Below, in pieces: positions 12,920-14,141 of a stretch of DNA of 64,000 bases. The position numbers were made by a program, and so were the translations under genes. This DNA is from Legionella donaldsonii. GTDB lineage: Bacteria; Pseudomonadota; Gammaproteobacteria; Legionellales; Legionellaceae. The stretch is from NCBI RefSeq assembly GCF_900452385.1, contig NZ_UGOA01000001.1:2427501-2491500 (forward strand). The letters are read 5' to 3'. The notes under the pieces are model-generated. The model had not been told where the DNA came from. It saw nothing but the letters and a program-made list of their open reading frames with translations, and searched no databases. The number at the start of each line of letters is the position of its first letter. Position 1 is the first letter of the stretch.

Positions 12920-12986
12920 ACCCTCAAAGAGGCAGAGACACGCTTTTAGTTTCTTTCACTAAAGAGATATTGTATGATACGCGCTT

Positions 12987-13066
12987 GCGCCGATTTGAAA
13001 CTTCAGCTTGCGGGCGCTCAGTAATTTGGTCTAGGCTCATTTTATTGTAAATACGGCTAAAGCGGG
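12987..13066 (+). promoter_or_regulatory. Candidate SAM-II riboswitch upstream of metN
   Basis: The leader contains GCGCC-GATTTGA (12987-12998), an 7-base link, then GCTTGCG-GGCGC (13006-13017), so GCGCC pairs with GGCGC. Further on are TAAAT (13048-13052) and GGCTAAAGC (13055-13063). As I remember the SAM-II class, its P1 stem is followed by GAUUUGA, closed by GCUUGCA, and the pseudoknot strand carries UAAA and GCUAAA; all four words are here in order. A 29-base insert between P1 and TAAAT can form its own stem (CAGTAA with TTATTG). The position before a methionine importer fits. I could not settle the pseudoknot pairing by eye. Confidence 0.55.
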
Positions 13067-13115
13067 TAATTTCCCTCCTTGCCTCCGCATGCTGCAATAC
13101 CCTTAGGTTGATGTA

Positions 13116-14141
13116 ATGATAGAATTAAATGGATTAACCAAATCCTATGCAACGAACATTGCCTTGCGTGATATCAATTTATTCATTCAGGAAGGTGAGA
13201 TTTTTGGCATCATTGGCAAAAGTGGTGCTGGAAAATCCACTTTATTGCGCTCCATTAATTTACTGGAAAGACCGAGTAGTGGAGAAGTCATTGTTGATAA
13301 TGAAAATATTACACACCTATCTATGCAGGGTTTGCGTAAAGCCCGCCACAAAATGGCAATGATTTTCCAGCATTTTAATTTACTCAATTCCAAAACGGTT
13401 TATGACAATATTGCACTGCCTATGCGCATCCAGGGAATAGCCGAATCGGTTATCCATGAAAAAATTCACGAATTACTCCCTCTTGTTGAGCTTGAGGAAA
13501 AAATACATCATTATCCAGGACAGCTTAGCGGGGGACAAAAGCAGCGCGTTGCCATTGCGCGTGCCCTCAGCTGCTCACCTAAAATTCTTCTCTGTGATGA
13601 AGCAACATCTGCCCTCGATCCGGAAACAACCAATGCCATTCTTGAATTACTAAAGAAAATTAATACTTTGTACGGTATTACCATTGTATTAATTACTCAT
13701 GAAATGGAAGTAGTAAAGCGAATCTGCCATCGCCTCGCTGTCATGGAGGCTGGTGAGATTGTTGAAATAACCTCCTTGGCGAGCGTATTCAGTAATCCAG
13801 CCAGCCCAGCACGAAGCATGCTATATACTCAGTTAAGCCCGCAACTCCCAGCTTGCCTGCAAAGTTCACTATCCAGCGTAGCTAATAATAAACCCTTGTT
13901 ACGCCTCTTTTTCCAGGGTGATAATGCGACTATTCCCTTTATTAGCAAAACCAGCCGTGAGCTGAATTTAGATATTAATATCCTCCTTGCTAATATTGAC
14001 CAATTTGATGCGGTTACCTGCGGTGTGCTAATAGTCGAATTAGCCGCTAACCAGGCATTGCTGCAAAAATTTATCAAACGTTGCGAAGAATCTAATTTAA
14101 CGGTGGAGATTTTAGGTTATGTCACTGACGATGTTTTATGA
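13116..14141 (+). CDS. metN: Methionine ABC importer, ATP-binding protein
   Basis: The 341-residue ATPase of the D/L-methionine uptake system. Walker A is GKSGAGKST (about residues 38-46), Q-loop FQHFN, signature LSGGQKQRVAIARAL, Walker B ILLCDEATSALDPET and H-loop LITHEM. The C-terminal 90 residues form a NIL domain, the methionine-sensing domain that inhibits transport when methionine is plentiful. metI overlaps its end by 23 bases and metQ follows. The putative SAM-II leader lies about 50 bases upstream, so both transcript level and protein activity may respond to methionine status. Confidence 0.95.
   Translation: MIELNGLTKSYATNIALRDINLFIQEGEIFGIIGKSGAGKSTLLRSINLLERPSSGEVIVDNENITHLSMQGLRKARHKMAMIFQHFNLLNSKTVYDNIALPMRIQGIAESVIHEKIHELLPLVELEEKIHHYPGQLSGGQKQRVAIARALSCSPKILLCDEATSALDPETTNAILELLKKINTLYGITIVLITHEMEVVKRICHRLAVMEAGEIVEITSLASVFSNPASPARSMLYTQLSPQLPACLQSSLSSVANNKPLLRLFFQGDNATIPFISKTSRELNLDINILLANIDQFDAVTCGVLIVELAANQALLQKFIKRCEESNLTVEILGYVTDDVL

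What the first reader, a model, noticed from the sequence alone, without database searches (positions are those of the whole stretch)
12960..13116. Candidate SAM-II riboswitch with an inserted stem ahead of a methionine importer in a gammaproteobacterium
GCGCC-GATTTGA ... GCTTGCG-GGCGC ... TAAAT ... GGCTAAAGC follows, in order, the conserved words of the SAM-II class as I recall it. The target genes metNIQ are a logical use. As far as I remember, SAM-II is mainly an alphaproteobacterial element, so a copy here would be unusual. The 29-base insert that can pair as CAGTAA/TTATTG would be a structural variant.
Basis: partly seen in the sequence, partly recalled or inferred. Interest (0 to 1): 0.72.

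Follow-up and report, generated by a model that had tools for sequence, protein, structure and literature searches.

The report
SAM-II riboswitch with extra hairpin
Ahead of the methionine-importer genes of this Legionella-family bacterium sits an RNA switch of the SAM-II kind that carries an extra hairpin; it recurs through most of the family and has many relatives in the wider class, yet the standard RNA library misses most of them.

Summary
A model from 20 same-genus leaders hits 104 of 143 Legionellaceae genomes; metN follows 84 of 92 matches inspected. A second model, built from sequences of other families that pass Rfam's SAM-II cut-off, has its two best hits in the 64-kb window on either side of the insert (E 3.6e-9 and 0.0034). 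Rfam's own model fails here (11.7 bits, cut-off 36) and passes in 0 of 140 Legionellaceae genomes. The inserted hairpin varies in length and sequence but usually stays paired. A downstream strand complementary to the aptamer's CAGCUUGCGG is conserved: a likely anti-aptamer. U-runs of terminators, common in relatives, are almost absent in Legionellaceae tails, so the output is probably translational or Rho-dependent; my folding test did not decide. 'Unusual in gammaproteobacteria' is wrong: half of the sampled class genomes have a match. The motif probably also underlies the orphan betaproteobacterial metXZ RNA (PMC4239095) and, on the opposite strand, Rfam's RF02424. SAM binding was not tested.

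The parts
12973..12978 (+). -10-like promoter box TATGAT; transcription would begin just before P1
   Evidence: In 65 of 84 Legionellaceae metN leaders a -10-like box ends 6-12 nt before P1; base shuffles give mean 3.6, max 10. The generic sigma-70 scan found no full promoter here.
12987..12991 (+). P1 5' strand GCGCC
   Evidence: Pairs with 13013-13017; 3 of 5 P1 pairs show changes on both sides among 29 Rfam-passing relatives; of 84 Legionellaceae leaders 46 have GCGCC/GGCGC and 26 GCGTC/GACGC.
12992..13003 (+). L1, beginning with GATTTGA
   Evidence: GATTTGA invariant in A2 (20 rows) and A6 (29 rows).
13004..13011 (+). P2 (pseudoknot) 5' strand CAGCTTGC
   Evidence: Proposed pairs with 13056-13057 and 13060-13065; 7 of 8 never vary and one (A13005/G13064) never pairs.
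13013..13017 (+). P1 3' strand GGCGC
13019..13047 (+). Extra hairpin inserted in L3 (CAGTAA...TTATTG)
   Evidence: 4 of 6 stem pairs show changes on both sides in 19 distinct rows, 89% of cells paired; 82 of 84 leaders have >=12 nt here and 63 of those 82 an uninterrupted closing stem of >=4 bp.
13048..13053 (+). L3 conserved TAAATA
   Evidence: TAAAT also in the named relatives, where the search pattern required it, and AAAT or similar in the Rfam-passing ones.
13055..13066 (+). P2 3' strand GGCTAAAGCGGG
   Evidence: independent model R2 hit 13039-13069, E 0.0034.
13085..13094 (+). Anti-aptamer strand CCGCATGCTG, complementary to CAGCTTGCGG (13004-13013) at 9 of 10 positions
   Evidence: Duplex with the aptamer strand stronger than with dinucleotide-shuffled tails: mean z -2.46, z<=-2 in 51 of 76 leaders; z -2.8 for the window.
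13105..13107 (+). Likely Shine-Dalgarno AGG of metN
   Evidence: 8 nt before the start codon; its role is inference.
13116..14141 (+). metN, methionine importer ATPase
   Evidence: TIGR02314 374.2 bits, below its equivalog cut-off of 499.7; best PDB matches are MetN chains over residues 1-336 (3dhw, 3tui).
14119..14766 (+). metI, permease
   Evidence: NF008049 226.6 bits, above cut-off.
14792..15568 (+). metQ, substrate-binding lipoprotein
   Evidence: TIGR00363 294.2 bits, above cut-off; PF03180 6.8e-95.

Best explanation
12987-13066 is a SAM-II class S-adenosylmethionine aptamer (an H-type pseudoknot of P1 and P2) whose loop L3 holds an extra hairpin. It starts a few bases after the probable metNIQ transcription start and works as an OFF switch for methionine import. 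When SAM is low, CAGCUUGCGG (13004-13013) pairs with the downstream CCGCAUGCUG (13085-13094), the aptamer is broken and metN is expressed. When SAM is high, SAM locks P1 and P2, the downstream strand is released, and expression falls. Shown by sequence: conservation, covariation of P1 and of the L3 hairpin, homology to Rfam-passing SAM-II sequences, conserved complementarity of the anti-aptamer strand, metN target, near absence of U-runs in the tails. Inferred: SAM as ligand, the direction of control, and the last step (ribosome access or Rho).
For: R1 hits 104 of 143 Legionellaceae genomes, 20 of 33 genera; metN downstream of 84 of 92 matches inspected. R2, built from 29 sequences over the RF00521 cut-off and none from Legionellaceae, finds both halves in the window and gives full-length hits of 68.5 and 67.3 bits in the nearly insert-less Legionellaceae copies L092 and L094. 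All 30 class genomes over the RF00521 cut-off are in R1's table; 28 of the 37 places over it coincide with printed R1 rows. P1 and insert covariation. Anti-aptamer complementarity. Promoter box fixed just upstream of P1. Relatives precede genes of the homoserine sulfhydrylase family, metX-like, metH, metK and homoserine dehydrogenase.
Against: The window is far below the RF00521 cut-off. P2 never varies inside the genus, so it has no covariation support there, and one of its eight proposed positions is a constant A.G mismatch. One strong RF00521 place (G501:C125) is not an R1 match. Folding does not show that the released tail hides the Shine-Dalgarno more than shuffled tails do (0.25 against 0.24 unpaired, p=0.96, 67 leaders), and an earlier version was a tie (16 lower, 16 higher of 74). 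The anti-aptamer is weak or absent in some leaders (z>-1 in 11 of 76). Covariation of its C/T with the P1 G/A is only borderline (Fisher p 0.036 and 0.11, not corrected for relatedness). 31 of 134 genomes with metQ have no R1 hit.
Confidence: 0.82

Rival explanations
1. It is a SAM-II aptamer, but the output is Rho-dependent termination: the SAM-bound form exposes the C-rich, G-poor tail as a Rho loading site.
For: Hardly any U-run (2 of 77 tails have TTTTT); tails average 31% C and 15% G over 74 leaders; the window's tail has 15 C and 8 G in 49 nt.
Against: The window's tail is only moderately extreme: 1125 of 18272 stretches of that size in the window are as C-rich. No Rho site was tested.
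Confidence: 0.3
2. It is a SAM-II aptamer and controls translation: the released tail folds over the Shine-Dalgarno, or the pseudoknot acts at a distance as reported for S. meliloti metA.
For: The anti-aptamer mostly ends 15-27 nt before the start codon; aptamer to metN start is 47-65 nt in 74 of 84; with the anti-aptamer engaged the Shine-Dalgarno is more open in 42 of 67 leaders and less in 1, though this follows largely from the constraint; S. meliloti metA precedent (PMC9373788, passages seen).
Against: Shine-Dalgarno pairing in the free tail is not above shuffled controls.
Confidence: 0.45
3. It binds something other than SAM (for example SAH or methionine), having diverged from SAM-II.
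For: Only sequence evidence exists here; P2 as proposed has a constant mismatch.
Against: GATTTGA and GCTAAA are invariant and CTTGC nearly so in both the genus alignment and 29 Rfam-passing SAM-II sequences; relatives precede methionine and SAM genes.
Confidence: 0.05
4. Chance resemblance or a protein-binding site.
For: The Rfam score is at noise level in the window.
Against: 104 of 143 family genomes, covariation, independent model hit E 3.6e-9.
Confidence: 0.01

Closest known systems
SAM-II riboswitch, Rfam RF00521 (SAM_alpha, metA element)
   Same: P1 plus pseudoknot; GATTTGA, GCTTGC and GCTAAA words; probable transcription start just before P1; before methionine genes
   Different: 29-nt hairpin in L3; target metNIQ; no U-run terminator; scores 11.7 bits against a cut-off of 36
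SAM-II long loop, Rfam RF01726
   Same: GATTTGA, TTGC and GCTAAAGC core; longer loops
   Different: No hit at this locus; only 12.3 bits (cut-off 44) in L028; its model shows pairing inside L1, not a hairpin in L3
metXZ RNA element of betaproteobacteria (Leyn et al. 2014, PMC4239095; section 10 read)
   Same: Pairing of blocks 1-4 and 2-6, block 5 against 1 and 2, and the antiterminator logic fit P1, P2, TAAAT/ATTTGA and the anti-aptamer; my betaproteobacterial hits precede metX-like and sulfhydrylase genes, mostly with U-runs
   Different: Their figure with the letters is not held, so identity is inference
Rfam RF02424 (Burkholderia sRNA Bp2_Cand287)
   Same: Its model matches the opposite strand of these aptamers: 36.9 bits, E 9.8e-5, positions 1-174, in the Herbaspirillum leader L161; weak in the window, L027 and L028
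   Different: Described as an sRNA on the other strand; below its cut-off of 70 here; the only match at E<=0.01 in 6 leaders given
SAM-V, SAM/SAH
   Same: Small SAM-binding RNAs (recalled)
   Different: Not among the matches to 4227 Rfam families at E<=10

Membership tests
SAM-II riboswitch | P1 stem supported by covariation | tested here: met
   3 of 5 pairs change on both sides and 145 of 145 cells are paired in 29 Rfam-passing relatives; in Legionellaceae GCGCC/GGCGC 46, GCGTC/GACGC 26 of 84
SAM-II riboswitch | P2 pseudoknot with covariation | tested here: inconclusive
   7 of 8 proposed pairs can form but do not vary within the genus; one never pairs
SAM-II riboswitch | Conserved core nucleotides of L1, P2 and L3 | tested here: met
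   GATTTGA, CTTGC and GCTAAA invariant in the genus and invariant or nearly so in 29 Rfam-passing sequences
SAM-II riboswitch | Homology to accepted members by an independent model | tested here: met
   R2 hits 12987-13018 (E 3.6e-9) and 13039-13069 (E 0.0034)
SAM-II riboswitch | Rfam RF00521 gathering score (cut-off of one model, not a structural trait) | tested here: not met
   11.7 bits against 36; 0 of 140 Legionellaceae genomes pass
SAM-II riboswitch | Located before methionine/SAM genes | tested here: met
   metN downstream in 84 of 92 matches
SAM-II riboswitch | Binds SAM and rejects SAH | not testable with these tools
   Needs in-line probing or equivalent
SAM-II long loop (RF01726) | Match to its model | tested here: not met
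   Not among the hits at the locus; its weak hits in the genome lie elsewhere
SAM-V / SAM-SAH | Match to their models | tested here: not met
   Not among the hits at E<=10

The most novel reading that the evidence does not exclude
The L3 hairpin is a selected working part, not passive filler. It is present in nearly all Legionellaceae metN copies found, with changing sequence and lengths from 13 to 112 nt, and also in some betaproteobacterial copies. It marks a SAM-II subtype that has lost its terminator and uses a conserved anti-aptamer to control a transporter by translation or Rho; and SAM-II of this core is a main SAM sensor of gamma- and betaproteobacteria that current models overlook.
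Probability: 0.35. Interest if true: 0.62.

Novelty: new variant of a known kind. Interest (0 to 1): 0.52.

Why it matters
It shows that a classic riboswitch class is far more common outside alphaproteobacteria than its Rfam model reports: 30 of 369 class genomes pass that cut-off, against 185 with a model from this window's genus at E<=0.1. It proposes SAM control of methionine uptake across most of the Legionellaceae sampled. It offers a natural series of copies with L3 inserts from 3 to 112 nt for testing how pseudoknot aptamers tolerate added domains. And it proposes an identity for two puzzling RNAs: the orphan metXZ element and, read on the other strand, Rfam's RF02424.

Tried and rejected
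Rfam scans alone would have rejected the element. Weak RF00521 hits elsewhere in the window's genome and L131-L133 are chance by inspection. A second match to the 3' half at G000:C1:213959 (L031, and L033 in G006) looks coding, like a response regulator, by eye. R1 matches of 22.0-24.3 bits (L103, L104, L105, L107) lack the full core and were taken as chance; R2 gives L107 17.6 bits for the 5' half and L103 10.3.

Folding of whole leaders and tails to show Shine-Dalgarno sequestration was a tie. The better-controlled version showed no excess over shuffles; its on/off difference (0.48 against 0.25 unpaired) follows largely from the constraint itself. Before the anti-aptamer was recognised I tested single words against base-shuffled tails: GCGG 73 of 77 (mean 62.8, max 71), GCTAA 23 (mean 8.2, max 20), CAGC 37 (mean 10.9, max 19), AAGCGG 4 (mean 10.2), GGCTAA 7 (mean 5.3), CTAAAG 3 (mean 2.3). 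The G/A to C/T covariation test was borderline.

Rows dropped: 7 of 84 leaders with tails over 80 nt (77 kept), L100b without the searched word (76 of 77), leaders without the anchor (68 tabulated) and one of 80 named loci, leaders with a weak duplex, no clear SD or an overlapping SD (67 of 77 kept). Of 37 places over the RF00521 cut-off 32 were fetched and 29 kept because 3 lacked the exact anchor words. Of 64 downstream proteins 31 fell in the sulfhydrylase family, 20 others were scanned one by one and 13 were not.

Full report
WHAT IS THERE. P1 is GCGCC 12987-12991 with GGCGC 13013-13017. L1 begins GATTTGA. The P2 strands are CAGCTTGC 13004-13011 and GGCTAAAGCGGG 13055-13066. A 29-nt insert 13019-13047 closes as CAGTAA/TTATTG. 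The metN start codon is at 13116, followed by metI and metQ. MetN aligns over residues 1-336 with solved MetN chains; TIGR02314 itself scores below its curated cut-off (374.2 against 499.7 bits), so the name rests on the PDB match and the operon.

RFAM. At E<=10 no SAM family appears in a 901-nt scan. With only 146 nt given, RF00521 appears at 11.7 bits (cut-off 36); it aligns P1 and the L1/P2 words correctly but does not reach the true 3' half beyond the insert. Whole-genome searches with RF00521 and RF01726 list only other, weak places. SAM-V and SAM/SAH are not among the hits. Taken alone this would have rejected the finding.

RELATIVES. The leader DNA finds relatives in the genus: 20 of 22 genomes, own included, have it in front of metN. 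One contig has the same length as one of Legionella brunensis (L218; G001:C8), so the genus is Legionella or a GTDB split of it. In the aptamer alignment 45 positions are invariant, while the insert changes; 4 of its 6 stem pairs show changes on both sides in 19 distinct rows, with 89% of cells paired. Model R1 hits 104 of 143 Legionellaceae genomes in 20 of 33 genera at E<=0.01 (the order search gave the same 104 of 143). Two of these, at 22 bits (L104, L105), look like chance. I passed 91 sources to R1 and got 92 matches, of which 84 have metN downstream. The other eight are L095 (contig ends), L101 and L102 (other places), L103, L104, L105 and L107 (chance), and the first half of L100, whose second half is counted among the 84. 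P1 in these 84 is GCGCC/GGCGC in 46, GCGTC/GACGC in 26, and other pairings in 12, that is, C-G against U-A. MetQ is found in 134 of 143 genomes; 31 of the 134 have no R1 hit, and one R1 genome (G116) has no metQ match. The same-genus genome G012 lacks both.

IS IT SAM-II? The test without circularity: RF00521 was run on 369 genomes of the class; 30 pass its cut-off, at 37 places. I fetched 32 of the 37, kept 29, aligned them and built R2; none is from Legionellaceae. P1 in this set has 3 of 5 pairs with changes on both sides and every cell paired. R2's two best hits in the 64-kb window are 12987-13018 (35.8 bits, E 3.6e-9) and 13039-13069 (16.3 bits, E 0.0034), in the right order on either side of the insert; the third, at 24295, is 13.2 bits, E 0.032. 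In nearly insert-less Legionellaceae copies R2 matches in full: L092 68.5 and L094 67.3 bits; also L101 54.3 and L102 44.8. In the other direction R1, built only from the genus, has a match in each of the 30 genomes that pass RF00521. 28 of the 37 passing places coincide with printed R1 rows; one (G501:C125) is not an R1 match, since G501 has a single R1 match elsewhere; the other 8 cannot be checked because the R1 row list was cut. P2 remains without covariation in the genus. A hint from one clade: L082, L086 and L089 have T for C13004 and A for G13064, which would be a C-G to U-A change in a register shifted by one.

HOW COMMON. R1 hits 185 of 369 class genomes at E<=0.1 (135 of 271 genera); by my reading of the table 171 are at E<=1e-4. 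RF00521 reaches E<=0.01 in 135 of 369 and its cut-off in 30. In Legionellaceae 0 of 140 pass it; 5 have E<=0.001, of which two are the nearly insert-less copies and three look like chance. Among loci that carry the motif, RF00521 passes in 1 of 12 and 3 of 18. 64 of the 80 have a downstream ORF of 150 aa or more: 31 of 64 are in the homoserine sulfhydrylase family; of 20 more scanned, 6 are alpha/beta-hydrolases (MetX-like, name recalled), 2 MetH, 1 MetK, 1 homoserine dehydrogenase, 1 amino-acid kinase, 2 NMT1-like and 7 without a Pfam match at 1e-20. The GTDB class probably includes betaproteobacteria (recalled).

THE INSERT. Between P1 and nAAA, 82 of 84 Legionellaceae leaders have 12 nt or more (13 to 112 nt; the other two have 3 and 5). 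63 of those 82 close with an uninterrupted stem of at least 4 bp (median 6 over the 82); the closing five bases take some 40 forms, the commonest (CAAAA/TTTTG) in 30. Outside the family 12 of the other 78 named loci have an insert in the same place, 11 labelled betaproteobacterial and one Alistipes; each can fold as a hairpin, L187 only weakly. The pattern allowed inserts of up to about 31 nt only. L144-L146, three genomes of one genus in another family, carry one before what looks like metN (by eye).

HOW IT MAY WORK. A -10-like box ends 6-12 nt before P1 in 65 of 84 leaders (base shuffles: mean 3.6, max 10), so P1 probably lies at the start of the RNA. In the tail, CCGCAUGCUG (13085-13094) is complementary to CAGCUUGCGG (13004-13013) at 9 of 10 positions. 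Over 76 leaders the duplex is stronger than with shuffled tails (mean z -2.46; z<=-1 in 65, z<=-2 in 51). In 79 named loci the same tendency is weaker (mean z -1.34; z<=-1 in 48, z<=-2 in 24); there 66 of 79 have a run of five T within 70 nt, while 2 of 77 Legionellaceae tails do. So the relatives look like terminator/antiterminator switches, and Legionellaceae seem to have kept the anti-aptamer strand and lost the terminator. What replaces it is open: Shine-Dalgarno pairing in the free tail equals that of shuffled tails (0.25 against 0.24 unpaired, p=0.96, 67 leaders), and the tail's C-richness is only moderate. I commit to an OFF switch with the anti-aptamer as expression platform; translation is somewhat likelier than Rho.

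LITERATURE. Corbino 2005 (PMC1273637, passages) mentions a few SAM-II copies outside alphaproteobacteria, naming Coxiella burnetii, Bordetella bronchiseptica and Bacteroides. Barrick and Breaker 2007 (PMC2258182, passages) call it sporadic in gammaproteobacteria and note terminators in alpha and beta. Weinberg 2010 (PMC2864571, passages) lists 'SAM-II long loops' in Bacteroidetes and marine samples. Leyn 2014 (PMC4239095; passages, outline and section 10) found SAM_alpha only in Rhizobiales and Rhodobacterales and described an orphan metXZ element in betaproteobacteria whose block pairing fits this motif. A 2017 Legionella paper calls its TPP riboswitch the first of L. pneumophila and holds neither 'metN' nor 'SAM-II' in its main text (PMC5338858, passages). 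My searches showed no paper on a SAM-II element in Legionella or before metN (open-licence PMC papers only; one search listed 10 of 26 and most were not opened). Which bases contact SAM in the crystal structure is recalled and not used as evidence.

RF02424. The Rfam family 'Burkholderia sRNA Bp2_Cand287' matches the strand opposite to the aptamer: over its full length in the Herbaspirillum leader L161 (36.9 bits, E 9.8e-5, cut-off 70; the only match at E<=0.01 in 6 leaders given) and weakly in the window, L027 and L028. It is probably this element drawn on the wrong strand.

VERDICT. A SAM-II riboswitch by sequence and structure, in a variant that the library model misses; not rare in its class. 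Ligand and output remain to be shown.

Noticed in passing
L161:298-447 (+); also window, L027, L028: Rfam RF02424 (Burkholderia sRNA Bp2_Cand287) matches the strand opposite to SAM-II aptamers; it may be this riboswitch drawn on the wrong strand.
   Followed up: partly
L102:1239-1290 (-), G124: A second, insert-less SAM-II-like aptamer (R2 44.8 bits) with GAGG at its 3' end, an ATG 7 nt on that opens a 29-codon frame, and then a frame of at least 363 aa that was not identified.
   Followed up: partly
L101:1092-1146 (-), G064: Insert-less SAM-II-like aptamer (R2 54.3 bits) ahead of a short frame, near a contig end; metQ of this genome is on another contig.
   Followed up: partly
L100:298-460 (+), G104: The L3 insert is about 112 nt long here, so the model found the two halves as separate hits.
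   Followed up: yes
L144-L146: SAM-II-like aptamers with a hairpin insert of about 30 nt in L3 before what looks like metN, in one genus of another family of the class.
   Followed up: partly
L187:5360-5423 (+): A copy in a MAG labelled Alistipes senegalensis, before a protein that resembles the betaproteobacterial MetX-like ones by eye; possibly a contaminant contig.
   Followed up: no
Betaproteobacterial loci such as L147, L157: The orphan metXZ RNA element of Leyn et al. 2014 is probably this SAM-II motif.
   Followed up: partly
window 24295-24330 (+): Weak match (13.2 bits, E 0.032) of R2 to GCTAAAGCGG without the 5' half; probably chance.
   Followed up: no
window 12458-12919 and 15723-17210 (+): Two frames flanking the riboswitch operon (153 and 495 aa) have no NCBIfam match at E<=0.001.
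   Followed up: no
Legionellaceae genera g3, g14, g15, g17: Genomes of these genera have metQ but no R1 hit; the element may be lost or too diverged.
   Followed up: no
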